Shown here: in pieces, positions 1,314 through 14,906 of the stretch
Layout of the letters: each line of letters starts with the position of its first letter
Position numbering within the stretch: the stretch's first letter is position 1
NCBI GenBank assembly: GCA_028554795.2
Contig: CM068825.1
Span: 95,597,451-95,661,450, forward strand
DNA length: 64,000 bases
Direction: 5' to 3'
From: Sinohyriopsis cumingii
Taxonomy: Eukaryota; Mollusca; Bivalvia; Unionida; Unionidae
The notes under the pieces: model-generated
Seen by the model: the letters and a program-made list of their open reading frames with translations, nothing else
What the model was told of the DNA's origin: nothing
The model's database searches: none
Made by a program: the position numbers and the translations under genes

Positions 1314-1329
1314 TTTTTTGTCTCTTTTC

Positions 1330-1746: not shown

Positions 1747-1749
1747 GAC

Positions 1750-2262: not shown

Positions 2263-2678
2263 GGTGACACTTTGTTGACATGCTCCAAAGCTTTCAGAAA
2301 CACGACATTAAACCTGGAGGCTATGGTGCTGACCAAATGTTGACCACTAAAATAATAGCCTGGGGGAATGAACAAGTGATAGGTGGTGTACTTTTGATTT
2401 TGTGTACGGGTTTTCTTGTCATATTTGACATTGCTATCCATCCACTGTTGCATTTGCTCGTCATGAACTTCCACATCAAAAAAATTTTGATTGGGAAGGA
2501 CATTGAGGACTTGGGTCGGGTGAATCATTTCTACTAAAGCCACTTCCCAATGGGCTTCGTGATCTAACTGGATGGCCTGAGGTAATTTGGCCGTGTAACA
2601 GCACAACGTGTTCTTGGGAAACACCTCCATGGAACTGTCACTGGGTAAAGTTAAGTAAAATTGGTTTTGGTGACTCAT
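2229..2678 (-). CDS. Penton-like minor capsid protein, N-terminal part (first frame)
   Basis: 149 codons from the ATG at 2678. The start QFYLTLPSDSSMEVFPKNTL and the later HWEVALVEMIHPTQ and FIPPGYYFSG are typical of the Polinton penton-like protein (single jelly-roll vertex protein). The frame leaves the family pattern near its end (WSTTKQLVAS then stop), while the homologous sequence continues in the neighbouring frame at 1750-2262. The ATG overlaps the stop of the upstream two-span membrane protein as ATGA (2675-2678), an arrangement that suggests co-expression from one message. No canonical X-XXY-YYZ slippery heptamer was found in the overlap, so a simple indel is the first explanation. 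Confidence 0.8.
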   Translation of the reverse strand: MSHQNQFYLTLPSDSSMEVFPKNTLCCYTAKLPQAIQLDHEAHWEVALVEMIHPTQVLNVLPNQNFFDVEVHDEQMQQWMDSNVKYDKKTRTQNQKYTTYHLFIPPGYYFSGQHLVSTIASRFNVVFLKALEHVNKVSPWSTTKQLVAS

Positions 2679-3088
2679 AATTCCAGAGTTCTGTGGCTGT
2701 CCGAGGGGTTACTGGACGTCAGAGGCGTGTCTCCGTCTAAAATGGGGTTCTGGTTGTGGTTGAAGTGGTGACTGGCACTGGCACTGGACACAAGGTTCCC
2801 GGGGTTCCCGTTCGAGGTGAATTTCAGGGAGGGATTAGGAAGCAGGTAACCGATGCAACTGCTCAATAAAATGGTCCACAATTGTTTGTCTCCTTGTTGC
2901 AAACTCAAATTGGCGATGGCTGCCCCGATGACACAATACACCACGAAGATTTGGCAGAAAAAGACGATTTGCGTTTTAGGCACACGTTCTCCACACCACA
3001 CCCACAAGGGTTGTTTTTGTAAATCTTGCACAGAAGAACTGGGTGAAGGAGGAGTGGTCGACGTAGCTGCGTCTGTATGAAAAGGCAT
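2675..3088 (-). CDS. Two-span membrane protein conserved in Polintons
   Basis: 137 residues from the ATG at 3088 (the open frame extends three codons further up, without an ATG). After a Ser/Thr/Pro-rich N-terminal tail comes WVWCGERVPKTQ and a hydrophobic span of about 23 residues (FFCQIFVVYCVIGAAIANLSL, about 39-61), a short polar loop, then a second span (LWTILLSSCIGYLLPNP, about 67-83) and a polar Asn/Ser-rich tail. The family is widespread in Polintons and of unknown function; an internal-membrane or envelope role is possible. It follows the integrase chromodomain by 5 bp, and its stop overlaps the penton ATG. The TATA-like box at 3101-3108 lies only about 13 bp before this ATG, too close to drive it in the usual way. 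Confidence 0.75.
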   Translation of the reverse strand: MPFHTDAATSTTPPSPSSSVQDLQKQPLWVWCGERVPKTQIVFFCQIFVVYCVIGAAIANLSLQQGDKQLWTILLSSCIGYLLPNPSLKFTSNGNPGNLVSSASASHHFNHNQNPILDGDTPLTSSNPSDSHRTLEL

Positions 3089-3093
3089 GATGG

Positions 3094-3438
3094 TCACTTC
3101 TTTTTATAGTCGATGACTTGCGAAGCGTCAATCCAAGAATCAAAACTGGGCGGATATCCTTTCCAACGTACTTTGACTTCTTTGACACGTCGTTTGCCCA
3201 CTTTACGGGTTCTGCGTTCGAGAATGCTTTCGATGTCGTACACGTCGTCTTCTTTTTTGGTGACACGTTGTAACTCGGGCAAATAAAACGTTCCTTTGAG
3301 CACTTCTCCGTTCATGTCTTCCAATTTATAGACGGCAGGATGACGGCCATGCACTCGTCCAGTGACGCGAAACAGTTCGGTCGTCCAGTTAGGTAAGTAA
3401 CCTTTGTCAAAAGTGCGTTTGGTTTTGCCAATGCGCAC
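3094..3438 (-). CDS. Integrase C-terminal part: SH3-like region and chromodomain, cut off by in-frame TGA
   Basis: 114 codons in the same frame as the integrase catalytic part and separated from it only by the TGA at 3439-3441. There is no ATG at its start, so it is not an independent gene in a eukaryote. The first part (GKTKRTFDKGYLPNWTTELF) is the SH3-like DNA-binding region of Polinton and chromovirus-type integrases. The last part (VYDIESILERR, then VKVRWKGYPPSFDSWID) is a canonical chromodomain with the aromatic Y and W positions expected to read methyl-lysine on histones, which would bias the target site. Without readthrough, the integrase would lose both modules. The last codons (DYKKK) overlap a TATA-like sequence. 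Confidence 0.9.
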   Translation of the reverse strand: MRIGKTKRTFDKGYLPNWTTELFRVTGRVHGRHPAVYKLEDMNGEVLKGTFYLPELQRVTKKEDDVYDIESILERRTRKVGKRRVKEVKVRWKGYPPSFDSWIDASQVIDYKKK

Positions 3439-4203
3439 TCAATCTCCTACGGCCAACTCTCCACTTTTCTTGGGGACAGCCCTCGTCGGGGACGTACCAA
3501 ACAGACGCTCAAACACCAGCACTTCGCTGTCGGGAGTCACTTCTTGCGGGGCACGTCCGATGCTTCGATGGTAAGATTGGTTGTACGCTTGCACCAGGTG
3601 CGGTAAGATGTCGATGTACTTCAGAGTGTGGTGATGCGTAAAATATTTCCACATGCGTTCTTTCAAAGTGCGTTGAAAACGTTCCACGATGCTGGCTTTG
3701 GTTTCGGGATTCTCGGTGGTAAAAAAATGAATGTCACGTTTCTTTAATTCTTTTTGGAAAGCTTGGTTCAGAAATTCGGTGCCTTTGTCCGTTTGCCATC
3801 GAAGAGGGTGACGACCGCTTTGTTTCAACACCCGTTGCAGGGCTCGCACTAACTCGCTGCTGGATTTGGAAGTCAAGGGCACGACCCAGGCAAATTTGGA
3901 AAAGACGTCGATGACACAAAACAAATATTTGTAGCCACGATTGTAGCTGGCCAAATGAGAGACATCGGCTAAATCGGCTTGCCATTGATGATCGATGCCT
4001 TCCACTCGGGTGCGACTTCTGGCAAACTTGCGTCGAATGGGTTTGTGTAAAGTGTAGGTAGCTTGTTCTTGTAACCATCGTTGCACTTGAGGTAAACGGA
4101 GACTTTTCAGTCGCGTTTTGGCAGCACGATACAATTTTTGAACTCCTGCGTAACCTGCAGGATGGGAGGGATCGTAGTAAATGCTGGCTAAGACTTTTTC
4201 CAT
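3439..4203 (-). CDS. Polinton integrase (rve, DDE), catalytic part ending at premature TGA
   Basis: 254 residues from the first true ATG (4203); the frame is open further up to 4239 but without an ATG. MEKVLASIYYDPSHPAGYAG is the usual start of these integrases, and YTLHKPIRRKF is the N-terminal DNA-binding part. The catalytic triad is visible: Asp in QWQADLADVS (about residue 77), Asp in WQTDKGTEFLN (about 139), and Glu in KASIVERFQRTLK (about 174). The protein would join the element into chromosomal DNA. It stops at TGA 3439-3441, right after SGELAVGD, in the middle of the linker to the SH3 and chromodomain part, which continues in frame. The 5' end overlaps the end of the 212-aa gene on the same strand. 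No TATA box was seen before it. The nonsense codon would be consistent with CpG deamination of an Arg codon (inference). Confidence 0.93.
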   Translation of the reverse strand: MEKVLASIYYDPSHPAGYAGVQKLYRAAKTRLKSLRLPQVQRWLQEQATYTLHKPIRRKFARSRTRVEGIDHQWQADLADVSHLASYNRGYKYLFCVIDVFSKFAWVVPLTSKSSSELVRALQRVLKQSGRHPLRWQTDKGTEFLNQAFQKELKKRDIHFFTTENPETKASIVERFQRTLKERMWKYFTHHHTLKYIDILPHLVQAYNQSYHRSIGRAPQEVTPDSEVLVFERLFGTSPTRAVPKKSGELAVGD

Positions 4204-4223
4204 TTTTTGTGTTGGTTGGTGTG

Positions 4224-4862
4224 TTAATAAGACACCCACTCTTGGAGGATGCTACTCTTTTTCTCTTGGGGTATTTTCTTGGATTGCAATGCTTTGCGTG
4301 TGCGGCCAGCAATACGTGTCGAAGAGGAGAAGGATGTCTGAGCGGGGGATATCGGTTCTTGTTTCACTTCTGTCTTCACTTCTGTCTTCACTTTCTTTTT
4401 CTCTTGTGAGGAAGAAGGGGTGGCCATCATCTTTTTAATCCATCCAATTCTGGAGGTAGGTGGTGTTGTTAACTTGCGTACTTTTTCTGGTGGAGTTTGA
4501 AACCCTTCCTCTTCTTCTCCTTTTTCTGTCTTGGTCACGGGTACTGGTGGTACTGGTACTGGTACTGGTACTGGTGCTGGACTTTTCATCAAGGTCTTAA
4601 AATCTTTCAGAGTGGGTAGAGCTGTTTCGTCTAAAGCTTTCTGGTGAAAGAGTTGCAGTCGTTGCAAGAGTTGACCGTACTTTTGCGATTTTTCTGTTTC
4701 GGACAAATCTTGGCGATCCATCAAGGACTGCAATTCGTGTTGTAACTGGGACATCTCGCTCAAATGGGGATTGGGAGGTAAATGCGGGGTGTGTTGTTCT
4801 TGCCACCGATGGTATTCCATCCATCGTTTGTAAGGCACTAAAGCTAGTTTTCGTCCTTCCAT
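4224..4862 (-). CDS. 212-aa acidic/basic mosaic protein with proline repeat and SUMO-type motifs
   Basis: Starts at a true ATG (4862) with MEGRKLALVPYKRWMEYHRW, a start seen in a Polinton protein family of unknown function. Residues about 35-90 look helical and coiled-coil-like (Gln/Leu-rich). A (Pro-Val)n repeat follows at about 94-108, encoded by GGTACT-type DNA repeats. Next comes an acidic patch (EKGEEEEGF) and Thr-Pro sites (QTPPEK, TTPPTSR). A stretch with three consecutive Val-Lys-x-Glu motifs follows, the last in VKQEPISP, which fits the phosphorylation-dependent SUMO motif. The C-terminus is Lys/Arg-rich. A TATA-like box lies at 4907-4914, 45 bp upstream and inside the preceding gene. 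The 3' end overlaps the open frame leading to the integrase. The function is unknown; a nuclear, virion-core or regulatory protein is plausible. Confidence 0.75.
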   Translation of the reverse strand: MEGRKLALVPYKRWMEYHRWQEQHTPHLPPNPHLSEMSQLQHELQSLMDRQDLSETEKSQKYGQLLQRLQLFHQKALDETALPTLKDFKTLMKSPAPVPVPVPVPPVPVTKTEKGEEEEGFQTPPEKVRKLTTPPTSRIGWIKKMMATPSSSQEKKKVKTEVKTEVKQEPISPAQTSFSSSTRIAGRTRKALQSKKIPQEKKSSILQEWVSY

Positions 4863-4906
4863 GGGGTTGTCAGGGGTCGATTCTGAGATCTTGGAACTTC
4901 CGAGGC

Positions 4907-4914
4907 CTTTTTAT
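4907..4914 (-). promoter_or_regulatory. TATA-like box of the 212-aa gene
   Basis: The minus strand reads GATAAAAAGGCC about 45 bp before the ATG at 4862. It matches the extended form of the other boxes of the element (TATAAAAAAGGCC at 5352-5360). It overlaps the last codons of the upstream 128-aa gene. Confidence 0.55.
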
Positions 4915-5297
4915 CTTGCTCCCATCAGTCCTCCCAACATGGTTCCCAAGACTCCTTTCAGTATGGGGCCTAACAAGAGAGGTAAAATACCTCCACGTTG
5001 CACTAACATCTTCTTTTTTTGACGAATGGGAATTTTCTTTTGAACCATTTGGCGAAGAACGTGACGATGTTTGCCTAAGCATTGTTTCTGGTGTTTGGAC
5101 AAAGGGATCGTGCCTTTCAAAACGTTCAAACAACATTCGCACACGGTATCGATGACCTCTTTGGAGGCTGTTTGAATGAGTTTATTTCGTAGGGGTGGAG
5201 AAGCTTTGGACAGGACAGATAACATGTCCCCATGTTTGACTAAACGTGGTGGCAGTCCTTTCCTTTTCTTTCCTTGGGGTTTTCTGGAGGGTGACAT
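4911..5297 (-). CDS. 128-aa basic protein with glycine-rich hydrophobic C-terminus
   Basis: The start is set at the ATG 5297; the frame is open to 5327 but only with GTG. A basic N-terminus (SPSRKPQGKKRKG) is followed by a helical middle with paired cysteines (DTVCECCLNVLKGTIPL), a second basic stretch (KIPIRQKKKMLVQRGG), and a hydrophobic Gly/Leu-rich end (ILPLLLGPILKGVLGTMLGG). This layout recurs in a small protein that accompanies most Polintons and adintoviruses and has been likened to adenovirus core proteins. The role is unproven: a DNA-binding membrane-tethering or core protein is possible. Its own TATA box is at 5352-5360. The 123-aa protein at 5905-6276 has the same layout and may be a diverged paralogue. 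Confidence 0.75.
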   Translation of the reverse strand: MSPSRKPQGKKRKGLPPRLVKHGDMLSVLSKASPPLRNKLIQTASKEVIDTVCECCLNVLKGTIPLSKHQKQCLGKHRHVLRQMVQKKIPIRQKKKMLVQRGGILPLLLGPILKGVLGTMLGGLMGAR

Positions 5298-5351
5298 CTT
5301 TGAGTCTTCAGGAGCACCAAAAAACACTGATACCCGACTTGGTCACAGGCC

Positions 5352-5360
5352 TTTTTTATA
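5352..5360 (-). promoter_or_regulatory. TATA box of the 128-aa gene
   Basis: The minus strand reads TATAAAAAAGGCC, 55 bp before the ATG at 5297. About 27 bp downstream is a TCAGT initiator-like sequence, the expected transcription start. Confidence 0.7.
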
Positions 5361-5391
5361 CTGGAACGCGTCGCCACTGATTGTCTTTACG

Positions 5392-5904
5392 TCATATTAG
5401 TTTGAGGACAGGCATGACACGTCGTGCAGGGGTACGTAACGGACTAAATCGAGCCAGTTCTTGCTTGGACAAATCCAGTAAACTTTGTAACATGCCCGAT
5501 CTTTCTTGAACTTTGATTTTGGGAGAAGGTACTTTGTGAGCAGCAGCCACTGCCACTAAATTGGAAGGTCCTGCCACTGGGGAAGTTCTTTTGGGGGTCA
5601 TCAACGGAGAAGTTCTTGGTGTGATCAACGTCTCCAAGTACTCTTCAGTTCTGGGTGTCATTAACGGAGAAGTGGACAAACGTGAAGCTGCCGGAGACGC
5701 AGTCACCGCCGTGGCAGGTCGTGGTTTGCGAGTGTAAGGTTGCGTCCTGGCCGAAGTGCCTCTCTTGCGACTAGTTTTCTGTGGACTTTTCTTTTTCTGG
5801 GGGCTTCTTTTCTTTTTCCGGGGTGTTGGTGGTGTCTGGTCAGAGGAGGGTCCTGCCACTGGAGAAGTTCTCCTTGGGGACCTGGTCTTTTTCTTCTTGG
5901 GGCT
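5392..5904 (-). CDS. Basic, repeat-rich core-like protein with disrupted start
   Basis: About 170 open codons rich in Lys, Arg, Ser, Pro and Thr. Motifs include RKKKRSPQKKK, two SPLMTP repeats and two TSPVAGPS repeats, the composition of a virion DNA-condensing core protein (pVII-like; inference). The frame begins immediately after the TGA of the 123-aa gene and has no in-frame ATG until the first SPLMTP. Two readings are possible. It may be an in-frame extension of the 123-aa gene interrupted by TGA 5905-5907. Or it may be a separate gene starting at the ATG 5908 that overlaps this TGA (ATGA), with a one-base indel in the four-base homopolymer at 5899-5902, because the ATG frame as it stands ends after about 22 codons. 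The second reading puts the basic tract right at the start of the protein and seems slightly better. Confidence 0.65.
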   Translation of the reverse strand, partial: SPKKKKTRSPRRTSPVAGPSSDQTPPTPRKKKRSPQKKKSPQKTSRKRGTSARTQPYTRKPRPATAVTASPAASRLSTSPLMTPRTEEYLETLITPRTSPLMTPKRTSPVAGPSNLVAVAAAHKVPSPKIKVQERSGMLQSLLDLSKQELARFSPLRTPARRVMPVLKLI

Positions 5905-6276
5905 TCATTGGACTTTTGTCTTGGGTATAACTTTGGGGGCATTAGGATCCCATCTTAAGAGTGAGCGAATGATGACCCCTCCTAGAGTACCGCTTCCTCC
6001 AGGTTTCAAAATGATTTGTTTTTTGGTTTGAGTGTCGATGCGGGGATCGGCCAGTTGGACCAAAGCCACTTTGTTTCGATCGAAAAAGCGTTTGGTTTGA
6101 TGAGGAATCTGAATGATTCCTTGGAGTAATTGACGTGCCGTCACCGTGAACCATCGTAAGACTTCTTTGAGACTAGCTTCTAAGACACGAGCTCGTGTTT
6201 GGGGATCTTTTTCTCGACTGATGCCATACAAGGCACGAATCAATTTGACGGGAAGATGCGACTGAAGGGACGTCAT
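5905..6276 (-). CDS. 123-aa capsid/core-type protein of unknown function
   Basis: The start is set at ATG 6276 (MTSLQSHLPVKLIRALYG); the frame is open to 6432 but crosses the TATA box, so the upstream part is leader. A helical N-terminal half (LLQGIIQIPHQTKRFFDRNK) is followed by DPRIDTQTKKQI and a Gly-rich hydrophobic end (GGSGTLGGVIIRSLLRW). This resembles, in order and spacing, the 128-aa protein at 4911-5297. No enzyme motif is seen. A TATA box lies at 6317-6324. It ends with a TGA that overlaps an ATG, and an open frame for a basic protein continues directly after it. Confidence 0.65.
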   Translation of the reverse strand: MTSLQSHLPVKLIRALYGISREKDPQTRARVLEASLKEVLRWFTVTARQLLQGIIQIPHQTKRFFDRNKVALVQLADPRIDTQTKKQIILKPGGSGTLGGVIIRSLLRWDPNAPKVIPKTKVQ

Positions 6277-6316
6277 GTTCGCACTGAGAGTGAGACAGAC
6301 GAAAAAGGGTCTGAGG

Positions 6317-6324
6317 TTTTTATA
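6317..6324 (-). promoter_or_regulatory. TATA box of the 123-aa gene
   Basis: The minus strand reads CTATAAAAACC, 41 bp before the ATG at 6276, with an initiator-like TCACTCTCAGT near the expected start. It lies just inside the 3' end of the ATPase open frame region (stop at 6332). Confidence 0.65.
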
Positions 6325-6331
6325 GATTTTT

Positions 6332-7075
6332 TTATGTGGAGTGAAATGAAGTCGAGGACGGAGACGTGTACAGGACAGCCCCTCCGTCTTGGCACCAGTG
6401 GTGAAACAAGTGGGTACAAAATCGCAAGTCATCGGGAGTCGTAGGTTTCAAATCGACGAGTAAATAGGCCTGTGGAGTTTGAGTGGCATCGTCGTACGCC
6501 TGAGTCAGCCAAGGCGTTCCTAACTGTTTGGCTAAGACTTGCACTTGCGATTTATCTCGAGGGCTTTTAAACAAGACCACGTAATGCGCATTGAGACTGA
6601 TGGTGCGATGGGCTTTACTTTGTTGAAACAAATTTTGGGTGATGTAAACGACACTGGCATTACGGTGATGCCCTTTGCGCGTGAACCACAGTTTAATTTC
6701 TTCTTCGTCTTCTCCTAACATGTCGTCAAAAATGACCAAATGGGTTTGACGGGAGTCAGAGACGATGCCGTCGTCTTCTTTAGGAATGCCTTCCACAAAC
6801 ACGATGGAATCGCCTTGACTTTCTCGCAAGAGGCTGTACGCCGATTGCCACTCTTTGTAACACCACACGATTCGTTGAGGTGGTCGATCGATCAAATGAT
6901 GTTTATGTTCGATCAAACGTTTGACGAATTCGGTTTTGCCAGAACCGCTAGGTCCAGCAATGAGCATGTTAAAGGGATGGCGAAGATACAAAGCCTCCCA
7001 ACTGGCACGATCTAAGTGTTCGTCGATGACTTTGACAGTAGAGGAAGAGGGAGCAGAGACAGCAGAGGTAGCCAT
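6332..7075 (-). CDS. FtsK/HerA-type genome-packaging ATPase
   Basis: 247 residues from the ATG 7075; the frame is open upstream only with TTG. The Walker A motif GPSGSGKT (41-48) sits in HPFNMLIAGPSGSGKTEF. The Walker B motif is THLVIFDDML (about 111-120), and a Gln-containing sensor follows in VVYITQNLFQQSK (about 142-154). This is the A32/HerA-like packaging ATPase found in Polintons, virophages and adintoviruses, which pumps the genome into the capsid. All motifs look intact. It has its own TATA box at 7123-7130, immediately downstream of the poly(A) signal of the preceding gene, so a new transcription unit starts here. Confidence 0.93.
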   Translation of the reverse strand: MATSAVSAPSSSTVKVIDEHLDRASWEALYLRHPFNMLIAGPSGSGKTEFVKRLIEHKHHLIDRPPQRIVWCYKEWQSAYSLLRESQGDSIVFVEGIPKEDDGIVSDSRQTHLVIFDDMLGEDEEEIKLWFTRKGHHRNASVVYITQNLFQQSKAHRTISLNAHYVVLFKSPRDKSQVQVLAKQLGTPWLTQAYDDATQTPQAYLLVDLKPTTPDDLRFCTHLFHHWCQDGGAVLYTSPSSTSFHST

Positions 7076-7122
7076 TGTGTGAGGAATGTCACTTGTGACA
7101 CGAAAAACAAACAAGACAAGAG

Positions 7123-7130
7123 TTTATATA
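7123..7130 (-). promoter_or_regulatory. TATA box of the ATPase gene
   Basis: The minus strand reads AGTATATAAACTC, 48 bp before the ATG at 7075. It lies about 15 bp beyond the AATAAA of the upstream unit, so the end of one unit and the start of the next are fused. Confidence 0.7.
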
Positions 7131-7145
7131 CTTTTTCAGAACACG

Positions 7146-7151
7146 TTTATT
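7146..7151 (-). terminator. Poly(A) signal AATAAA for the tail-anchored protein/polymerase unit
   Basis: The plus strand TTTATT reads AATAAA on the minus strand, 12 bp after the stop of the 116-aa membrane protein (7164). It is followed by GTGTTCTG, a G/U-type downstream stretch. Confidence 0.5.
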
Positions 7152-7163
7152 GAATGTTTTTTT

Positions 7164-7514
7164 TCAAACATGAATACGAAAGACAAAAATACATAAAAGC
7201 CAAAGGCTTAAGTACAAGAATAAAAGGCACATGATAACCATGAACGTGGAATAAAAACAAGTGTCTGTACAACAACCACATGTTTTGGGTAAAGTTCTAA
7301 TCAGTTCTATAGTAGGGGGTAAGGTCACACAAGTGTCCTCCCGAAAGGGTCTTTCAGGCCTGTCCACGACAGTCCTGTCCTGGGTGACGGATTCTTCTGG
7401 CACCGTCACTAACACAGGTTGAAAAGTAACTTTTTTCCTTGAATAACTCTCGTGCATACTGGGCCACCTCTTGTGTCCAAGCCTCAAAACCCTGGTCTCG
7501 TAGATGTCCAACAT
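7164..7514 (-). CDS. Tail-anchored Cys-rich membrane protein
   Basis: 116 residues from the first ATG (7514); the frame is open up to 7577, close to the polymerase stop, but without an ATG. The N-terminal part is soluble and basic (RVLRLGHKRWPSMHESYSRKK). A cysteine cluster CGCCTDTC sits directly before one hydrophobic span of about 25 residues (FMVIMCLLFLYLSLWLLCIFVF) at the very C-terminus. This is the layout of a tail-anchored membrane protein; the cysteines could be palmitoylated or bind metal (inference). No family is recognised. It follows the polymerase gene closely and ends just before AATAAA, so the two genes may share a 3' end. Confidence 0.6.
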   Translation of the reverse strand: MLDIYETRVLRLGHKRWPSMHESYSRKKVTFQPVLVTVPEESVTQDRTVVDRPERPFREDTCVTLPPTIELIRTLPKTCGCCTDTCFYSTFMVIMCLLFLYLSLWLLCIFVFRIHV

Positions 7515-7581
7515 TTTACTCCTAACCAATCTGGTTTCTTCTTCGTCAACGACATGGTAAGTTACTTCAATGAACAATGAA

Positions 7582-10500
7582 CTATCGATCTTGCCTAGGG
7601 TTCCTTTTCATATACAGACCAATACCGACGTGACCATACGGCAACGTAAAGTGATTGGGAAGTCTCACTCGCTTCTGGTACACGATTTGATAGATTTTTT
7701 CTAGGGGCCGACTGACGATGTGGTGAGTGGGTAAACGTACAATCTTGTTCGGTTGATAAGTGGTCACTTTAAAGTTTCCATCCTCTCCCGATTGCAAGGC
7801 TTCTTTCAATACCCCAAAGTTGACCACTCGACTGGTACGATGATTCAGAGTCAGTCCTTTCACTTTGCACGTCGTGTGCACTTCTCCTTGTTTGTCCCGG
7901 TATTCGTAGCCGTAATTTTTGGGACCACCACTGACGAAACTTAGAATCTTGTCGTCGGGATGCTCGTCTGTCCAGGCTCCTAAACGGTCTCCTTCGATGT
8001 CAGGGTGATGTTGACTCGGGTGATGGATGTAAATGCAACTGTCCGTGTCAAAGTACAGGACGCGTTCTTCTAACAGTTCTAAAGCTTCGTACAATTTTAA
8101 GCGAGCATGAGCTGTCACGTAAGCCGCAATGATGACATTTCCAAAAGGGTCGTCTTGTACAAAGTCCAGATCTTCTTCGTAATTGACCAAGATCAAATCC
8201 TCTCGAACGACGTCCACGTGTTTCATGTATTTGGTTTTGTCGTGAATCATCTGGAAGTAGCGGGAAGGTTCTGTCAAAAATTCCGTCTTGGGTAAACACG
8301 GTCGTTGTGCCATTTTACCCCACAAGCAATTTAACATCACTTTGGCAAACGATCGCCTGCCTTCGTTTTTTTCGATGTGGTCTAAAGAGATGCCTTCTTG
8401 TTCGTAGTATTTCTCTTTGAATTGTATTTGGTCTTCGGGAGTGTGACACCAGGAAGGATAGCCGCTGGCTTCTTGTTTCAGTTTCAAAAAGGCATCCACG
8501 TAGTCGGCGAAAATGCCTTTCTGAGTAGGGTCACCCTTGTGGTACTGTTGTGTCTTGGGAAAGTGGCAAATTTCGTACACTTCTAACAGTTGGTATCCCA
8601 TGTACAGAGCTTTGAACAATTCCACGCTGACCCAGGTTCCCATCAAGGCACGTTCTTCCTGGATGTGATGGCAAGGTTGGTCCTGGTTGCACGTTTCGGC
8701 ACAAGTACGGCACAAGGGAAACATCAGTTTGCCTTGACAATGGTGAGGTAAGACGGGATGGTATAGGTTCGTGGGAGGCAAAACTTTACACTTGATCAAG
8801 CCTTCGTATTGTCGAATGTTTTTCAGGTCGATGTGTTCCGTCAACAATTGCGGGTGCCCTACAGGAAAGCGACAATATCTGCACACGTAGGGATACAGCG
8901 AACACACGTCCAAGTATTTGATTTCTTCTCCTTTCTCTTCGTCGGCTTGGTACAGCAAACAGGTGGCATTGGTCCTTCCTCCGTACAAACTATCCCTCGG
9001 GTTCAGCGGGTCCATGAACTGGTAACTTTCCACGAGGCGTTTAAACTCGGGATCGGTTTTCAAACGGTGATCGTACTCGTGTTCCCACATTTCCACCACT
9101 TGGTATCCTTGCTGTTCTAACTTTAGGCGTCGCTGACAAGTGTTCTGGTACAAGTCTTCCATGGTTCGTTGCAAAAACTGATTTTTAGTGTCACGGTCAG
9201 GGTAACAGACGGGACATCCATGAAATAAGCAACCGTTAAACTCGTACACGATCTTGGGGTTTTCTAAGTCCCAGCCATCGACCGAATACGTTCCGATGGT
9301 CTTTTCGCCTCCTCCGTTGCGGGCATGCTGAATCCATTTGTCTTCCTTGTCGCACAAGTAATGTAACCAGCGTAGGGCTTTGACCGAGTATTGACGTTTG
9401 ACAAAGTGGGTCGTTTGAGGACTGATGACAGCCACGGTCTTTTCAGGCATGAATCGTTGGCGGTACACTAAGGAACACGCTTTGGCAATGGTGCAAGCTT
9501 CTTTCAAAGGATCGACCCCTCCGTGTTCCATGAACAGTTCTCGAAATTTTCCACAGCAACGTCGTAAAATGTCCACGTCGGAACGACAATACTTTAGCAT
9601 TTCTTCCTGAAAGTCGAAGGGGTCAGAGGCATGAGCCTGGTACCAAGCGTAGAAAGCTTCTCGTTGTTCGGTACGCATGTTGTCGGGGTCGTAATAGTGA
9701 GCCTCAGGCAAATGGGGTAGAACGGCATGTTGATTGGCTTCCGTATTGAAAAAGTGTGGAAAGTACCCTTTAGCCATTTCTGTCATTCCAAACGTTTTAG
9801 GCATTCGGCTCAAAGGCATGGCCAAGTAACTCATCGAATCTTTAAACTGCACTTGTCCCACTTGCATGAAAATGATTTTGGCTCCGTTCAAAGTGACTTT
9901 AGGACGTTCGGTGCCTTGTTCCGTATAGTATCTCAAAAGAAACTGTCCATCGTATCCGGAGAAATTGTGAGCCATCACCGTGGCATGACGATGACAATCT
10001 CCGTAACGTTCGATGTCCTCTTGGCTCCACGTCTTGTCGATGGGGTCTAAGACCCATTGGGCAAAATCGGCTAACGTGTTCGGTCCCCGAAATATTTTTT
10101 CACGTCCTCCAGGAATCTTGCTGCAGTGAGGGCAATGACTGAAGATAGGTTCTTGAATGCACTTCTCGCACGCTCGATGAGCCACGCAGAAATTAGGAAT
10201 GTGAATGCCAGTCTCTTGCATGCATTCGAAATCGAAAAAGATGAAATTGCCTTTCTTCTTGTGACCGTCGTCTTTCTCTGGTGGGGGTTGGTATTTTTGC
10301 ACGTAGCATTCGTGTTCCAAGTCCACGATGTGGTGACAAATGTGACATTTTTTCTTTCCTTGACATACGTGTGCCTTGGTACTATTGGTACGTATGCCTT
10401 GTCCACAGGTAGGGCACATTCTCAGCACTTGACAAGCACATTTCTTCTGTGAACCTTGTGTTTTCAAATGTTGTTGGTAACAGGTAGGACTGACAAACGT

Positions 10501-11646
10501 GCGCAGACAAGTTGAACAAGGCACTGGTTCTTCGCTCAGACAGGGTGGAGAGGCTAAACATCCTGGGCATTTCCATCCACAATGTTTGTGTTGCTCTCGA
10601 TTGTTATAACCATAGTCACATTTCTCACAATAATAAACATATCCCAGGAATCCGGTGATACTGGTAATGGTATCGAAATGTTCATCGTGATGATAGACAT
10701 GAATGTATTTTCCGTCCTTAAAATCTTGGCCTCGAAACAACAGAGACCCACGCATTTCTTGAGGGTGCACTTTCAAGGTGTAGCGTGGGGCTAGGGCATC
10801 TTGCAATTTTTGCATCTCAGGAATGCCACAGGGTGTGTCTTTGGACAGTCCGGCTTGTTGTAACAGGAGTTCTGCTTCGTTTCGTTGTTTGGCTCGGTCC
10901 GATCGTTGAATAGTTTTCCAGGTTCTTTTCCATTCTACCGTGTCGTTCTTGTTGGCATAGGTTCGTCCCACCACGATGGCACGGGCTAAACACATCTGGT
11001 CTTGAGGGTTGTGAATTCGGACGAGACTTGTTTTGGTGTTGCGAAGGTCGTCCACCAATAACATCTTTTTGCGTCCTGTCCCTTGAAGAAGAGAGACGTG
11101 GGCCATTTTCAGTGTGGCTTTACCATCGGTGATGTCAAACTGGTCATTAGATTGTTGTACGTGTTGAATCTTGTCCATGATTTTGGAAGGGGTTAGTTCT
11201 GCGGGTCTGCTAAATTCGATCCAAACAGGGGATTTCAAACCGTCGTGATCTATGGACAGTGTCAAGCGATCGTCTTCTTTGGGTTGACATTGTCGCTTGA
11301 GTGCGGTGAGCAAAGAATCCCACATCTCGGTGATAAACCCTTCTGCTTTCTCCAAGGGTACGTCGGCCTTGAAATCTTTAAACTTCACCGTGTAGGTGTA
11401 AGCCGTGGTTCTAAATTTTCTAGAGGAGCGCTTTTCCGTCTCTCGAATGGAATAGTACTTTTCAGGGTTGACTAAGGGTGGTGAACTTGGTTTAGAGGTT
11501 TCGGATTCTGGTTCACTCATGTCCTCTTCAAAATCACTGGCATGAATTTGTGCCAAGATTTCAGCCCTGGTACGAGGCGATAGATCACGTTTCTGCCTCT
11601 TACTTTCTTCTTCTTCTTTCTTCTCGAATGAATAGGATCGTTTCAT
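7582..11646 (-). CDS. Protein-primed family B DNA polymerase (pPolB)
   Basis: 1,354 residues from the ATG 11646, uninterrupted. Exonuclease motifs: FDFE (471-474), HNFSGYDGQF (about 560-569) and YCRSDVDIL (686-694). Polymerase motifs: A, DVCSLYP (913-919); B, KVMLNCLWG (1102-1110); C, YFDTDS (1198-1203). The N-terminal third is Lys/Glu-rich, then a Cys/His-rich block (about 340-447) carries many CxxC pairs and probably several zinc fingers. A YEFNGCLFHGCPVC segment (801-814) resembles the Cys/His motif seen in many Polinton polymerases between the exonuclease and palm. The enzyme would replicate the element from a terminal protein primer. All catalytic residues look intact although integrase and penton are broken. 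It is divergent from the zinc-knuckle gene, with its own TATA box. Confidence 0.97.
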   Translation of the reverse strand: MKRSYSFEKKEEEESKRQKRDLSPRTRAEILAQIHASDFEEDMSEPESETSKPSSPPLVNPEKYYSIRETEKRSSRKFRTTAYTYTVKFKDFKADVPLEKAEGFITEMWDSLLTALKRQCQPKEDDRLTLSIDHDGLKSPVWIEFSRPAELTPSKIMDKIQHVQQSNDQFDITDGKATLKMAHVSLLQGTGRKKMLLVDDLRNTKTSLVRIHNPQDQMCLARAIVVGRTYANKNDTVEWKRTWKTIQRSDRAKQRNEAELLLQQAGLSKDTPCGIPEMQKLQDALAPRYTLKVHPQEMRGSLLFRGQDFKDGKYIHVYHHDEHFDTITSITGFLGYVYYCEKCDYGYNNREQHKHCGWKCPGCLASPPCLSEEPVPCSTCLRTFVSPTCYQQHLKTQGSQKKCACQVLRMCPTCGQGIRTNSTKAHVCQGKKKCHICHHIVDLEHECYVQKYQPPPEKDDGHKKKGNFIFFDFECMQETGIHIPNFCVAHRACEKCIQEPIFSHCPHCSKIPGGREKIFRGPNTLADFAQWVLDPIDKTWSQEDIERYGDCHRHATVMAHNFSGYDGQFLLRYYTEQGTERPKVTLNGAKIIFMQVGQVQFKDSMSYLAMPLSRMPKTFGMTEMAKGYFPHFFNTEANQHAVLPHLPEAHYYDPDNMRTEQREAFYAWYQAHASDPFDFQEEMLKYCRSDVDILRRCCGKFRELFMEHGGVDPLKEACTIAKACSLVYRQRFMPEKTVAVISPQTTHFVKRQYSVKALRWLHYLCDKEDKWIQHARNGGGEKTIGTYSVDGWDLENPKIVYEFNGCLFHGCPVCYPDRDTKNQFLQRTMEDLYQNTCQRRLKLEQQGYQVVEMWEHEYDHRLKTDPEFKRLVESYQFMDPLNPRDSLYGGRTNATCLLYQADEEKGEEIKYLDVCSLYPYVCRYCRFPVGHPQLLTEHIDLKNIRQYEGLIKCKVLPPTNLYHPVLPHHCQGKLMFPLCRTCAETCNQDQPCHHIQEERALMGTWVSVELFKALYMGYQLLEVYEICHFPKTQQYHKGDPTQKGIFADYVDAFLKLKQEASGYPSWCHTPEDQIQFKEKYYEQEGISLDHIEKNEGRRSFAKVMLNCLWGKMAQRPCLPKTEFLTEPSRYFQMIHDKTKYMKHVDVVREDLILVNYEEDLDFVQDDPFGNVIIAAYVTAHARLKLYEALELLEERVLYFDTDSCIYIHHPSQHHPDIEGDRLGAWTDEHPDDKILSFVSGGPKNYGYEYRDKQGEVHTTCKVKGLTLNHRTSRVVNFGVLKEALQSGEDGNFKVTTYQPNKIVRLPTHHIVSRPLEKIYQIVYQKRVRLPNHFTLPYGHVGIGLYMKRNPRQDR

Positions 11647-11779
11647 CTTGAGTGCAAAACGTCAAATGACTCAAGTTCAAACACCATAGACTAATTTATA
11701 GTCATGGCAAACCAGCGTATATAAAAAGGGTGTGTCTTGTCCTTTCACTATTCATTTCACTCTCAAACCGAGGAGAACG
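11647..11779. promoter_or_regulatory. Divergent promoter: pPolB (-) and zinc-knuckle gene (+)
   Basis: The intergenic 133 bp holds two TATA boxes in opposite directions. TATAAATT on the minus strand (11693-11700) lies 47 bp before the polymerase ATG. TATATAAAAAGGG on the plus strand (11718-11727) lies 53 bp before the zinc-knuckle ATG, followed by a TTCACTATTC initiator-like sequence. An AP-1-type TGACTCA (11667-11673) lies in the polymerase leader. The two boxes are so close that the two pre-initiation complexes could compete. Confidence 0.7.
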
Positions 11780-12250
11780 ATGGAAGAGACTACCCAGATG
11801 GAACGTTTCGTCAGAGCTTTGCGAGGGGTCATTAGAAAATTCCCTTCAGACCAGCCGACGGACTACTCTCCTTCCTTTCGAGATAAAAGTCAAGATACTT
11901 GCTATATCTGTCAGAAGAAAGGGCATTGGTCTTCAGAGTGTCCAGACCGTGAAAAAAGAAAAAAAACAGGGGCTAAAAAAGACAAAAGTCAAGATACCTG
12001 TTATTATTGTAAAGAAAAAGGACATTGGTCTCCAGATTGCCCAAAAAAGAAACAAGAGGAGTCAGAAGAAAAGAAGGATTCTTCAGAAGAAGAGAGGGAT
12101 TCTTCGAAAGAAGAGAGGGATTCTTCAGAGGAAGAAGAGGAAGAAAGAAGACAATTCTATTTAAAAGAGGCAAAGAAACAGGAGAAGAAAAGAAGAAATG
12201 AAGAAAATGAGGAAAAAACGGTGAAGAAATTCAAAAAAGAGAGAGACTAA
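11780..12250 (+). CDS. CCHC zinc-knuckle protein with charged tail
   Basis: 156 residues from the ATG 11780; the frame is open to 11732 only with GTG. It has two zinc knuckles C-x2-C-x4-H-x4-C, CYICQKKGHWSSEC (41-54) and CYYCKEKGHWSPDC (74-87). Each follows the same DKSQDT lead, so the unit of about 33 residues is duplicated. The rest is a highly charged tail with DSSEEER/DSSKEER repeats (casein-kinase-like sites) and a basic end (KKFKKERD). Zinc knuckles of this type bind single-stranded nucleic acid (retroviral nucleocapsid, CNBP). In a DNA element, a single-strand-binding or RNA-binding role in replication or expression is plausible. It is one of only two plus-strand genes. ATTAAA at 12283-12288 may be its poly(A) signal. 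Confidence 0.8.
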   Translation: MEETTQMERFVRALRGVIRKFPSDQPTDYSPSFRDKSQDTCYICQKKGHWSSECPDREKRKKTGAKKDKSQDTCYYCKEKGHWSPDCPKKKQEESEEKKDSSEEERDSSKEERDSSEEEEEERRQFYLKEAKKQEKKRRNEENEEKTVKKFKKERD

Positions 12251-12282
12251 ACAAGGAGAAAGAAGAAGTCAATGAACTTTTA

Positions 12283-12288
12283 ATTAAA
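12283..12288 (+). terminator. Poly(A) signal ATTAAA of the zinc-knuckle gene
   Basis: ATTAAA lies 33 bp after the stop and is followed by a GT-rich stretch (GTGTTCTGTTGTG). The gene therefore seems to use ordinary polyadenylation, unlike the neighbouring pair with histone-type ends. Confidence 0.45.
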
Positions 12289-12478
12289 GTGTTCTGTTGT
12301 GAATTGTGAATTGGATTGTAACTATGGAGAAAAGAATACATTAATGATATAAGGTAAGTGTCTTTGAGTTTTGATTTTAAAATAAGAAGCTACACTCACG
12401 CACTCATACACAGACACGTACTATAAGGGTAAAATGGGTGGGGTTTATTTTTGAGTTATTGGCAAATTGAAATTGTAT

Positions 12479-12517
12479 TTCTTTTCGAGAAATGTGGGTG
12501 GCCCTGAAAAGGGCCTT
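12479..12517 (-). terminator. Histone-type mRNA 3' end signal (stem-loop plus downstream element) of the Gln-rich gene
   Basis: On the minus strand, 27 bp after the stop of the Gln-rich gene, stands GGCCCTTTTCAGGGCC (12500-12515): a perfect 6-bp stem with the TTTC loop. It has the A-rich 5' flank and ACCCA 3' flank of metazoan replication-dependent histone mRNAs. About 14 nt further on is CGAAAAGAAATA, a purine-rich histone downstream element able to pair with the UCUUUU-type 5' end of U7 snRNA. No AATAAA is seen between stop and stem-loop. The sequence match is direct; function as a processing site is inference. Confidence 0.85.
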
Positions 12518-12542
12518 TTTTCTTTATGGTGTAGGAGTGAGT

Positions 12543-13103
12543 TTAACCAATCAACTTTAACTGCCTTAAGCCTTTGCCACGGCCAAGGCCTACTTCTGAT
12601 GATTGGGTTGAAATCACTAAGGGTGGTACGATAGGCTTAGTCACAGGGTTGGCGTGTTTAGCTCGGGAAGGTCGTATTCTCTTCGGTCGTGATAAAGAAG
12701 TCTGATACATTTGTTTCAGACTTCTTAACTCCGCTAAAATGTCCAACAGTACCGTAGCCGTTTGATTTTCACTCTCTTGTTTATTTGCTGCTACTTCTTC
12801 TTGCTGTTGTTGCTGTTGTTTTTTTCTTACCTCTTCTTGTTGCTGTTGCTGTTGCTGTAGGAGAAAAGCTTGTTCCGCTTCCTTTTGTCGTTGCATAAAT
12901 TTCTCCAATTCTTCTTTCTGTCTCTGTCTAAAATTCTCCACTTGCGGTAATGAAGAAGGTAACGAAGGTTCCGGAACAAATTCTTGCGAGGTAAGAAAAT
13001 CCACAAAATCCCAATGTACCTCTTCTGAAAGTAAGTCCGGGTTCCCTTGGGCAGTCTCCCCTGCTGGTGCACCCCAATGGATCGTTTTCTGAGTTTCCGT
13101 CAT
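12543..13103 (-). CDS. Gln-rich coiled-coil protein, member of histone-like divergent pair
   Basis: 186 residues from a true ATG (13103). An acidic, aromatic N-terminal part (HWDFVDFLTSQEF) and Pro/Ser linker are followed by a long Glu/Gln/Lys helix, probably a coiled coil (about 55-135), with two Gln runs of 7 and 6 residues (83-89 and 96-101). Next comes a basic patch SRPKRIRPSRAKH (138-150) and a Gly/Lys end. No family is recognised; it is not a histone. The Gln runs are coded by mixed codons (CAG and CAA) plus the GCT/TGT-type repeats seen on the plus strand. The gene has a TATA box (13152-13158) in a promoter shared with the 78-aa gene, and its 3' end is a histone-type stem-loop rather than a poly(A) signal. 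A DNA-binding or scaffold role in early or replicative phase is possible. Confidence 0.7.
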   Translation of the reverse strand: MTETQKTIHWGAPAGETAQGNPDLLSEEVHWDFVDFLTSQEFVPEPSLPSSLPQVENFRQRQKEELEKFMQRQKEAEQAFLLQQQQQQQEEVRKKQQQQQQEEVAANKQESENQTATVLLDILAELRSLKQMYQTSLSRPKRIRPSRAKHANPVTKPIVPPLVISTQSSEVGLGRGKGLRQLKLIG

Positions 13104-13322
13104 GTTGAATCACTGTCGCATAGATTGACTGCACACAAGCGCTAACGAATCTATATAGACCACGTGACGTCACAGACTGCTCTCTTCGGATTGGATGCGA
13201 GCTGACTGAATTTTGTAACGCGTGTTCGGATTGGTGAATGAATTCAATCTGTTTCAATCCTTCCTGTACCTATAAATAAGCGCAGTTCACTGCATTGATT
13301 CACCTATTCTCGTCGCTTCAAG
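13104..13322. promoter_or_regulatory. Shared histone-like divergent promoter
   Basis: This 219-bp region lies between two head-to-head genes. Minus-strand TATA: TCTATATAG (13152-13158), 49 bp before the Gln-rich ATG. Plus-strand TATA: TATAAATA (13271-13278), 45 bp before the 78-aa ATG. Between them is CACGTGACGTCAC (13161-13173), an E-box (CACGTG) overlapping a full CRE-type palindrome (GTGACGTCAC). Two identical TTCGGATTGG sequences (13185-13194 and 13225-13234) are inverted CCAAT boxes about 40 bp apart. CCAAT, CRE and TATA elements in a short divergent spacer are typical of metazoan H2A-H2B gene pairs. Confidence 0.75.
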
Positions 13323-13559
13323 ATGTGGACCACAGTTGAGTCATCCACCCTTGTGTCTTCCATGATGTTTAGGACGGACATGCTCATGTATGTCAGGTCC
13401 AAGTGGACTGTTGTTGATAGGACAGATACTAGTCAATGGATGAGGAGAGTTTACATAGAAAGACAAGGATGTCTCAAGAGGGTACTTGTGTATGGACCGG
13501 CAGTTAGAAGGAGTTTAAGAAGAAGAAGAAGAAGATGTGACAGATGCCATCTATGTTAA
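13323..13559 (+). CDS. 78-aa Arg-rich protein, member of histone-like divergent pair
   Basis: 78 residues from the ATG 13323, the first ATG after a good TATA box. The N-terminal half is mixed (SSTLVSSMMFRTDMLMYVRSK). The C-terminal half is strongly basic (RRVYIERQGCLKRVLVYGP, then RRSLRRRRRR) and ends in a CDRCHLC cysteine cluster. The Arg run recalls protamines or an Arg-rich RNA/DNA-binding motif; no family is recognised. The stop (TAA) is only 18 bp before a histone-type stem-loop, as in histone genes. Short length lowers certainty that it is coding. However, promoter, start, stop and 3' processing signal are all in register, which a chance ORF would not show. Confidence 0.65.
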   Translation: MWTTVESSTLVSSMMFRTDMLMYVRSKWTVVDRTDTSQWMRRVYIERQGCLKRVLVYGPAVRRSLRRRRRRCDRCHLC

Positions 13560-13570
13560 TATTAACATAA

Positions 13571-13616
13571 ACCCAAAGGCCCTTTTCAGGGCCAGCCATA
13601 TTTCTCGAAAAGAGAT
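13571..13616 (+). terminator. Histone-type mRNA 3' end signal of the 78-aa gene
   Basis: CCCAAA then GGCCCTTTTCAGGGCC (13578-13593): perfect 6-bp stem, TTTC loop, 3' flank AGCCA. AAAAGAGATA follows at 13608, a downstream element of the U7-pairing type 14 nt after the stem. It is nearly identical over about 45 bp to the copy at 12479-12517 on the other strand, including the non-consensus ATTTCTCG spacer, so the two ends share an origin. Confidence 0.85.
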
Positions 13617-13636
13617 AGCCTTTCCATTGCCTACCC

Positions 13637-13690
13637 TTTTTTTAAATTTAAATTTAAATTTAAATTTAAAAAATTTAAAAAATAAAAAAA
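13637..13690. repeat. AT-rich TTTAAA palindromic repeat
   Basis: A run of T, then about five tandem AAATTT units and A-rich sequence, almost perfectly self-complementary. It lies between the histone-type 3' end and the 45-bp repeat array, so it could be an unwinding element near the element's terminus. Confidence 0.6.
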
Positions 13691-13697
13691 TCCCATA

Positions 13698-13968
13698 TTC
13701 AATTCCCCTTGTCCCTAGACAGACCCAAACTCTATTCCCCATTTTCAATTCCCCTTGTCCCTAGAGTGACCCACGATTTTTCTCCATGTTCAATTCCCCT
13801 TGTCGCCAGAGTGACCCACGATTTTTCTCTATGTTAAATTTCCCTTGTCACCAGAGTGACCCACGATTTTTCTCCATGTTAAATTTCCATTGTCGCTAGA
13901 GTGACCCAGGGGTCTCTGTAATGCTAATTCCCATTGTCGCTAGGGTGACCCCATTTACTACTTATAGC
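13698..13968. repeat. Terminal array of about six 45-bp repeats with internal dyads
   Basis: Units start at about 13698, 13744, 13789, 13834, 13879 and 13924. A typical unit is TTCAATTCCCCTTGTC followed by CTAGAGTGACCCACG and an AT-rich spacer. In each unit the GTC(A/C/G)C and GTGAC arms flank a 4-bp centre (TAGA or CAGA); the unit at 13834 is a perfect GTCAC-CAGA-GTGAC dyad. The array sits where the element ends and is likely part of its terminal inverted repeat. The partner would be beyond the left edge. Confidence 0.75.
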
Positions 13969-14126
13969 TATGTTTGAATAACATGAATGACTCACCACAG
14001 TGTCTAAGAAACTTCCCTAAATGCAAAACTTACCCAAGGTTGGATGGATGCTGTGTATGGGACAGAGAGGTGGACAGTGGTGCAACTAATGCCTCTGCTA
14101 CATGTGTAATCTGGATATAAAACATC

Positions 14127-14906
14127 TTTGCTAGCCAAGGTTCTGATATGTCAACTCTAACAATATCTTGGCACAATTGATCAGATATTCTAGTCCTTTG
14201 TCCTAGCCACATCTCCTGGATCTCAAGAGTTGCCTCCCTTAGTATGTAATGCCAACTAACCATCAGCATGTAATAGAAGTGCATTGTACATTAGTCTAAA
14301 ATGATGTAGGCTATTGACTTCTAAAGGATACTTTAATAAGTTTAACATCAAAAGTATGATTATGTACCAGAGAGAAGCCATTACAAGTGTATCTGAGTGA
14401 AAAGTATTTGTACAAACATAGACCTGCAGTGGAAAATTGCCTATTTATGAATCCATTCAAGTTGTGTGCTCCCCTTGTCTTGATCAAGCAGGAACAGTGT
14501 TAAGATGATCATGTTGTTGTTGTTGTTGTTGTTGTTGTAGGGTTTAATGCCATTTTTCAGCACACGATAGGCTATACATGGCGGCCAGTATTAATGGTGG
14601 AGGAAGAACCTGGAAAACCCCCAGAAAGAACCACTGACCTACGAGAAGCTACTGGCAAGCTTTCTCACATACCCACATTAGCCGAATCCGAGACTCAAAC
14701 CCATGCAGACAGAGGTGAGATGGCAGTGATCCGTAACAGAGAGCGCTTTAGACCACTCGGCCACTCAGGGCCCCTTAAGATGATCAACTTAGTTGTGATT
14801 GGGTGTGGTGACTTACCGCTGCATCCACAGACCCCAAGCAAAGAAATATCTAATCGATTCAGCAAGGTGTAGATAGGGTTAAAATATCAGAACCTTGGCT
14901 AGCAAA
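14127..14906. repeat. Perfect 23-bp inverted repeat flanking a SINE
   Basis: The sequence beginning TTTGCTAGCCAAGG at 14127-14149 recurs exactly as its reverse complement at 14884-14906. The arms are 734 bp apart. They may be parts of a DNA-transposon remnant or a foldback that later received the SINE. Confidence 0.55.
14512..14774 (-). mobile_element. SINE family A, tRNA-derived, copy 1
   Basis: Read on the minus strand, it begins with a tRNA-like head (GGCCGAGTGGTCTAAAGCG A box; GGTTTGAGTCT-type B box), has a body of about 150 bp, and ends in an AAC repeat tail (GTT repeats on plus). A perfect 12-bp target-site duplication TTAAGATGATCA stands at 14500-14511 and 14775-14786. Confidence 0.9.

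What the first reader, a model, noticed from the sequence alone, without database searches (positions are those of the whole stretch)
12479..13616. Two virus-like element genes end in histone-mRNA-type 3' stem-loops
Both genes of the divergent pair next to the terminus stop 18-27 bp before a perfect GGCCCT-TTTC-AGGGCC stem-loop, at 12500-12515 (-) and 13578-13593 (+). The A-rich 5' flank, ACCCA/AGCCA 3' flank and a purine-rich downstream element 14 nt later are all in place. This is the metazoan replication-dependent histone mRNA signature (SLBP and U7 snRNP). Neither product is a histone. The likely meaning is that the element makes non-polyadenylated messages stabilised in S phase, which would couple its replication or integration step to host DNA synthesis. 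I know of no description of this for Polintons.
Basis: partly seen in the sequence, partly recalled or inferred. Interest (0 to 1): 0.92.

Follow-up and report, generated by a model that had tools for sequence, protein, structure and literature searches.

The report
Polinton genes with histone-type mRNA ends
A virus-like Polinton element, present in at least 150 copies in what is probably a mollusc genome, ends five small non-histone genes with the same RNA stem-loop and downstream element, at essentially the same spacing, as its host's histone genes, so it likely makes messages without poly(A) tails that would be timed to host DNA synthesis.

Summary
Confirmed, and larger than stated. Rfam RF00032 passes its cut-off at 12476-12520(-) and 13573-13618(+). 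The element is a 17,173-bp Polinton with 394-bp terminal repeats and a TATAGC target duplication. Its left arm, outside the window, holds three more small genes ending in the same signal: one hairpin in the terminal repeat, two of a variant with an A-U outer pair, which score below the cut-off. None of the five products matches a histone. Host H3 and H2B genes carry the same hairpin with GAAAAGA at the same 13 nt. In copies not chosen for it the hairpin is exact in 38/45, 31/33, 9/13 and 6/9 for four of the genes. The polymerase, integrase and virion part has none. AATAAA is not conserved, gene 1 partly excepted. SLBP/U7 processing and S-phase timing are inferred; no RNA was examined. Flanks are also fairly conserved, so recombination may contribute. 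My searches of open papers found only a bare count of six such motifs in a Polinton-like virus/virophage set (PMC12220804).

The parts
12543..13103 (-). gene 1, 186-aa non-histone protein (long predicted helix, basic C-terminal part)
   Evidence: open frame; at least 150 genomic copies at 98-100%; 20 database relatives; helix 53-137 in the model; no histone match
12500..12515 (-). hairpin GGCCCT-TTTC-AGGGCC, 27 nt after the stop of gene 1
   Evidence: RF00032 41.2 bits; spacing
12480..12486 (-). downstream element GAAAAGA, 13 nt after the hairpin
   Evidence: same spacing in host H3 and H2B
13323..13559 (+). gene 2, 78-aa basic protein ending RRRRRRCDRCHLC
   Evidence: open frame; 2 database relatives; no Pfam match
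13578..13593 (+). hairpin GGCCCT-TTTC-AGGGCC, 18 nt after the stop of gene 2, inside the terminal repeat
   Evidence: RF00032 35.6 bits
13607..13613 (+). downstream element GAAAAGA, 13 nt after the hairpin
13104..13322 (.). intergenic region between the divergent genes, with TATA-like sites (13152, 13271), two ATTGG (13190, 13230), CACGTG (13161) and TGACGTCA (13165)
   Evidence: motif scan; role as a two-way promoter is inferred
13569..13962 (.). right terminal inverted repeat (394 bp); the left one lies in L064 from 6790 on
   Evidence: alignment of the two ends
13963..13968 (.). target duplication TATAGC, also found left of the element
7582..11646 (-). DNA polymerase B, 1354 aa
   Evidence: PF03175 E 2.2e-42
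3094..4239 (-). integrase plus chromodomain, cut by an in-frame stop at 3439-3441
   Evidence: PF00665 E 1.9e-14; PF00385 E 3.1e-8; frames
6332..7114 (-). packaging-type ATPase
   Evidence: PF04665 E 8.2e-8

Best explanation
Five small non-histone genes in the two arms of a Polinton end in the host's histone-type 3' signal and are likely processed by the host's stem-loop-binding protein and U7 snRNP into messages without poly(A) tails. Shown: the hairpin, the ACCCA-like flank and GAAAAGA at the host's own 13-nt spacing; their presence in most sister copies; their absence from the polymerase, integrase and virion part; no AATAAA conserved across the copies (gene 1 in part excepted). Inferred: cleavage just after the ACCCA-like site by the SLBP/U7/CPSF73 machinery. 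Inferred further: since this machinery works mainly in S phase (recalled knowledge), the outer genes, which look regulatory or DNA-binding, would be expressed while host DNA is replicated and so help set the time at which the element copies itself.
For: RF00032 at 41.2 and 35.6 bits, a third at 35.6 in the left terminal repeat, two variants at 31.0, E 3.3e-6. All five lie 18-29 nt after a stop codon. Host H3 and H2B 3' ends have the same hairpin (H2B identical, H3 one loop base off) and GAAAAGA at the same 13 nt. Outer stem pair changed on both sides (G-C to A-U) in the variant. Exact hairpin in copies not chosen for it: gene 1 38 of 45, gene 2 31 of 33, 125-aa gene 9 of 13, 118-aa gene 6 of 9; GAAAAGA (at most 1 mismatch) at 13 nt in 43, 32, 13 and 5 of these (9 of 9 at 12-14 nt for the last). 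All 30 RF00032 places cut out of the genome lie in this family. Two database relatives that lost their stop read through hairpin and GAAAAGA. No RF00032 elsewhere in window 1-14000 at E up to 1.
Against: No RNA data. The two variants score below Rfam's gathering score (31.0 against 34). Gene 1 has no recognisable hairpin in 2 of 45 copies. With gaps allowed the flanks are 0.75-0.93 identical against 0.94-0.95 for the hairpin, so the excess is modest. The double-sided pair change is one event: 51 of 500 shuffles reach it. In gene 1, 26 of 46 copies have AATAAA within 130 nt after the hairpin and 18 of 46 within 60 nt before it. The two database relatives each imply one stem mismatch. The U7 model found nothing, but rang in none of the control genomes either; SLBP was never searched successfully. 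This copy's integrase is broken.
Confidence: 0.8

Rival explanations
1. Passenger: an ancestor captured host histone 3' regions once; they were duplicated inside the element and are kept alike by homogenisation of the terminal repeats and by conversion, without being needed for 3' ends.
For: Two hairpins lie inside the terminal repeat, which is homogenised between ends; the 125- and 118-aa genes share a long stretch of 3' sequence; flanks are also well conserved; host H2B has the identical 16 bases.
Against: GAAAAGA is the best conserved block (0.98-1.0) and the hairpin next (0.94-0.95) in the three genes outside the repeats. Left-end genes that differ in sequence (129 aa, 182 aa, 204 aa) all end in it. 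6 of 10 diverged copies of the 125-aa gene are exact where about 0.05 would be expected at their 4-fold-site divergence (rows deduplicated and summed by hand). AATAAA is not conserved as an alternative signal outside gene 1.
Confidence: 0.12
2. The hairpins act as DNA or nascent-RNA barriers (terminator, replication or packaging signal at the ends) rather than as histone-type processing sites.
For: Outward-facing position next to the termini; inverted arms of 54 nt, 87% alike, flank the divergent pair.
Against: Does not explain GAAAAGA at the host's exact 13 nt, the ACCCA-like flank, or the placement 18-29 nt after stop codons of left-arm genes 1.2-2.1 kb inside the terminal hairpin.
Confidence: 0.05
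3. The transcripts are mainly polyadenylated downstream; SLBP binding serves only stability, export or translation, or works only in some tissues.
For: This copy has AATAAA 50 and 87 nt past the hairpins; 26 of 46 gene-1 copies have one within 130 nt.
Against: Only 6 of 47 gene-2, 1 of 13 125-aa, 2 of 9 118-aa, 1 of 3 129-aa and 1 of 6 182-aa-type copies have AATAAA there, against 0.19 expected by shuffling, while GAAAAGA, needed for cleavage rather than for SLBP binding, is conserved.
Confidence: 0.15

Closest known systems
Metazoan replication-dependent histone genes (Rfam RF00032 Histone3)
   Same: Hairpin, A-rich 5' flank, ACCCA-like 3' flank, purine element at 13 nt, small open frames in tandem or divergent pairs; tested against this host's own H3 and H2B.
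   Different: None of the five products is a histone; two of the five hairpins have an A-U outer pair; the genes lie in a mobile element.
Polintons/Mavericks and adintoviruses
   Same: Polymerase B, integrase with chromodomain, packaging-type ATPase, terminal repeats, 6-bp target duplication.
   Different: I found no description of histone-type 3' ends in these elements (open-licence papers).
Histone 3' UTR stem-loops counted in a Polinton-like virus/virophage collection (PMC12220804, section 16 read)
   Same: Same Rfam-type motif reported in the same broad group of elements (n = 6).
   Different: Only a count, none in the cryptophyte elements of that study, no gene, spacing or conservation given; its supplement was not read.
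RF00032 call in SARS-CoV-2 (PMC7786107, passages read)
   Same: RF00032 named in a viral genome.
   Different: 14.7 bits and inside a coding region; here 31-45 bits at gene ends.
Histoid genes of adomaviruses (PMC11071296, passages read)
   Same: Animal DNA viruses with a link to histones.
   Different: There the protein resembles a histone; here only the 3' signal does.

Membership tests
Histone 3' UTR stem-loop (RF00032) | Match above the curated gathering score | tested here: met
   Met for the two in the window and the left terminal one; not met for the 125- and 118-aa genes (31.0 against 34).
Histone 3' UTR stem-loop (RF00032) | 6-bp stem, 4-nt loop, ACCCA-like flank | tested here: met
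   All five genes of this element.
Histone 3' UTR stem-loop (RF00032) | Purine-rich downstream element at the host's spacing | tested here: met
   GAAAAGA at 13 nt in all five genes and in host H3 and H2B.
Histone 3' UTR stem-loop (RF00032) | Processing by SLBP and U7 to a poly(A)-free end | not testable with these tools
   No RNA data; U7 model uninformative; SLBP search did not complete.
Replication-dependent histone gene | Encodes a histone | tested here: not met
   No PF00125 match for any of the five products.
Polinton/adintovirus | Protein-primed-type DNA polymerase B | tested here: met
   PF03175, E 2.2e-42; protein priming itself not tested.
Polinton/adintovirus | Retrovirus-like integrase | tested here: met
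   PF00665 and PF00385; frame broken by a stop in this copy.
Polinton/adintovirus | Terminal inverted repeats and 6-bp target duplication | tested here: met
   394 bp and TATAGC.
Polinton/adintovirus | Packaging ATPase, capsid proteins, adenain-like protease | tested here: inconclusive
   ATPase met; protease only a weak match below cut-off in a sister copy, L065; the 437-aa frame at 3-1313, taken as major capsid protein by size and position, has no Pfam, PDB or PHROGs match.

The most novel reading that the evidence does not exclude
A whole class of Polinton/adintovirus-type elements has taken over the histone 3'-end pathway for its outer, early-type gene set, splitting its genome into an S-phase, poly(A)-free regulon in both arms and an ordinary replication and virion block in the middle, and so times its copying to host or germline DNA synthesis.
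Probability: 0.55. Interest if true: 0.92.

Novelty: new variant of a known kind. Interest (0 to 1): 0.88.

Why it matters
Histone-type 3' ends are regarded as the mark of replication-dependent histone genes. A virus-like element that carries them on five non-histone genes, in at least 150 copies, would be a natural case of a mobile element using this pathway, would give an S-phase switch written in RNA, and would explain why poly(A)-selected RNA data could miss the outer genes of such elements. It makes the question of how Polintons time their replication in animals directly testable.

Tried and rejected
Considered and rejected: chance; insertion of histone-cluster DNA; a conserved poly(A) backup signal (looked likely, not borne out over copies except partly for gene 1).

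Led nowhere: viral-contig scans for polymerase, 186-aa protein and hairpin patterns gave no relative; the 3 pattern hits look like bacterial phage DNA by their frames and have no RF00032 match. The AlphaFold model of the 78-aa protein is poor (pLDDT 54); no fold search was run. PDB sequence searches gave nothing useful. The U7 model found no match, but rang in none of the 14 control genomes either. A genome-wide count of the hairpin, a search for SLBP and searches for diverged copies by protein (P0016, 78-aa) were asked and never answered. The ungapped conservation figures overstate the contrast with the flanks, with gaps, is fairer and is the one cited. One search counted loci fetched twice: its 17 rows (expected 0.07, 10 exact) are 10 distinct copies (6 exact, about 0.05 expected by my hand sum). 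Copies of gene 1 are too alike (4-fold divergence at most 0.11) for that test.

Full report
1. Observation. The two hairpins are at the stated places. A consensus scan gave only these two sites, each read on both strands, against 0.27 matches expected. Rfam RF00032 passes its cut-off at both: 41.2 bits, E 9.6e-9, and 35.6 bits, E 1.2e-6. Stop codons end 27 and 18 nt before them, and GAAAAGA starts 13 nt after them. In window 1-14000 a lax search (E up to 1) found no other RF00032 match.

2. The element. Polymerase B (PF03175), integrase (PF00665), packaging-type ATPase (PF04665) and a zinc-knuckle gene were identified by Pfam, and a chromodomain behind the integrase. The two named polymerase relatives are from oysters at 43% identity, so a mollusc host is likely but inferred. 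The left end lies outside the window, in L064. Terminal repeats of 394 bp and a TATAGC duplication give an element of 17,173 bp (G000:C2:95594240-95611412). This copy is decayed: the integrase frame has an in-frame stop, and the frames at 1750-2678 look like one gene split by a frame change (the latter is my reading, with no family match). The 437-aa frame at 3-1313 is taken as the major capsid protein by size and position only (no match).

3. Five genes, not two. In the left arm three genes read outward: 129 aa (L064:7199-7588), 125 aa (8435-8812) and 118 aa (9311-9667). The first ends at GGCCCT-TTTC-AGGGCC inside the terminal repeat (35.6 bits). The other two end at AGCCCT-TTTC-AGGGCT (31.0 bits each, E 3.3e-6, below the gathering score of 34), with the outer pair changed on both sides. 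All five hairpins lie 18-29 nt after the stop codon. The three left genes share a 30-base motif (1 mismatch each) that starts 90-92 nt before the ATG; none was found in window 1-14000. None of the five products matches a histone.

4. The host's own histone genes. PF00125 finds histone genes in tandem arrays of about 8.3 kb. I fetched four short 3' ends: one H3 and three H2B, named by their C-termini as I recall them. All have the RF00032 hairpin (35.9 and 38.2 bits). H2B has the identical 16 bases; H3 differs at one loop base. In all, GAAAAGA starts 13 nt after the hairpin, as in the five element genes. The surrounding sequence differs, so this is not histone-cluster DNA.

5. Conservation. RF00032 in the 2.9-Gb genome gave 75 scored places; the list is a lower bound and lacks even the window's own two. 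The 30 that were cut out all lie in this family: 18 with gene 1 or 2, 12 with left-arm genes. The other 45 were not read. Gene 1 has at least 150 copies at 98-100% identity, the list being capped there. Of the best 30, chosen by protein, 29 have the exact hairpin after gene 1 and 27 after gene 2. Counting only copies not chosen for the hairpin in question, each locus once and this element included: gene 1 38 of 45 exact, 2 without; gene 2 31 of 33; 125-aa gene 9 of 13 although its protein falls to 41% identity; 118-aa gene 6 of 9. GAAAAGA with at most one mismatch at exactly 13 nt: 43 of 45, 32 of 33, 13 of 13 and 5 of 9 (9 of 9 at 12-14 nt). The 129-aa gene could not be counted: its other copies had been chosen by the hairpin. 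Against 4-fold sites, 6 of 10 diverged copies of the 125-aa gene are exact where about 0.05 were expected (deduplicated by hand). This is not a clean test: with gaps allowed the flanks are 0.75-0.93 identical against 0.94-0.95 for the hairpin and 0.98-1.0 for GAAAAGA, so recombination of whole 3' regions may contribute, and for gene 2 the terminal repeat may be homogenised. The pair change is a single event and by itself weak (51 of 500 shuffles).

6. Beyond this genome. P0011 and P0041 have lost the usual stop and read on as WPISGPPTSLEKRYY and QKPFSGPLTLLEN, which match the window's frames through hairpin and GAAAAGA (RPFSGPPTFLEKKY, QRPFSGPAIFLEKR). Back-translation implies one stem mismatch in each. 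The hosts of these contigs are unknown.

7. Poly(A) signals. This copy has AATAAA 50 and 87 nt past the two hairpins. Over copies it is present within 130 nt in 26 of 46 (gene 1), 6 of 47 (gene 2), 1 of 13 (125 aa), 2 of 9 (118 aa), 1 of 3 (129 aa) and 1 of 6 (182-aa type), with 0.19 expected by shuffling; and within 60 nt before the hairpin in 18 of 46 gene-1 copies and 1 of 6 of the 182-aa type. So it is not a conserved 3' signal, gene 1 partly excepted.

8. Mechanism. Most likely SLBP binds the hairpin, U7 pairs with the purine element, and cleavage after the ACCCA-like site leaves a message without poly(A). This is the established route for histone messages (recalled knowledge) and is inferred here. 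The S-phase step follows from SLBP's known cell-cycle control and is a further inference. That the proteins are early or regulatory is inferred from position, small size, basic tails and predicted helix.

9. Print. Searches for adintovirus or Polinton with histone and stem-loop, for histone stem-loop with transposable element and SLBP, and for SLBP or U7 with viral terms (open-licence papers only) gave no description. PMC12220804 (passages and section 16 read; supplement not read) counts six histone 3' UTR stem-loops in a Polinton-like virus/virophage set without comment. PMC7786107 (passages) reports a 14.7-bit call inside a coronavirus coding region. PMC11071296 (passages) describes histone-like proteins in adomaviruses. 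PMC6713331 (passages) only cites an SLBP paper. PMC12166091 (listing and start of abstract) concerns SLBP and ribosomal frameshifting, a different matter.

Noticed in passing
L064:7678, 7747, 8903, 9759 (- strand): A 30-base promoter-like motif (GGGGGATGTTTTCCTTCACGTCCGCGCTTT) before each of the three left-arm genes, 90-92 nt before the ATG (twice before the 129-aa gene); absent from window 1-14000.
   Followed up: partly
L065:4436-4984, L066:4487-5101 against L064:7199-7588: The left-end gene differs between sister elements (129-aa type, 182/204-aa type) while the hairpin behind it stays: gene swapping at a fixed 3' end.
   Followed up: partly
window 13693-13955: Tandem 45-bp units make up most of the terminal repeat.
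   Followed up: no
window 11780-12250 (+): Zinc-knuckle (CCHC) gene convergent with gene 1; it has no hairpin, only ATTAAA 32 nt after its stop.
   Followed up: partly
window 14690-14775 (-): Looks by eye like a tRNA-derived SINE; not tested.
   Followed up: no
L051:3505: A further exact hairpin with GAAAAGA at 13 nt behind a 182-aa-type gene (52% identity), beyond the end of the neighbouring element.
   Followed up: no
L068 (G000:C6:10198000-10207999): Two polymerase matches of this family in opposite directions within 10 kb, so elements are nested or side by side.
   Followed up: no
L065:1873-2433: Adenovirus-type protease-like frame in sister elements (weak, below cut-off); no such frame of 60 aa or more from an ATG was seen in L064 6700-10000.
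   Followed up: no
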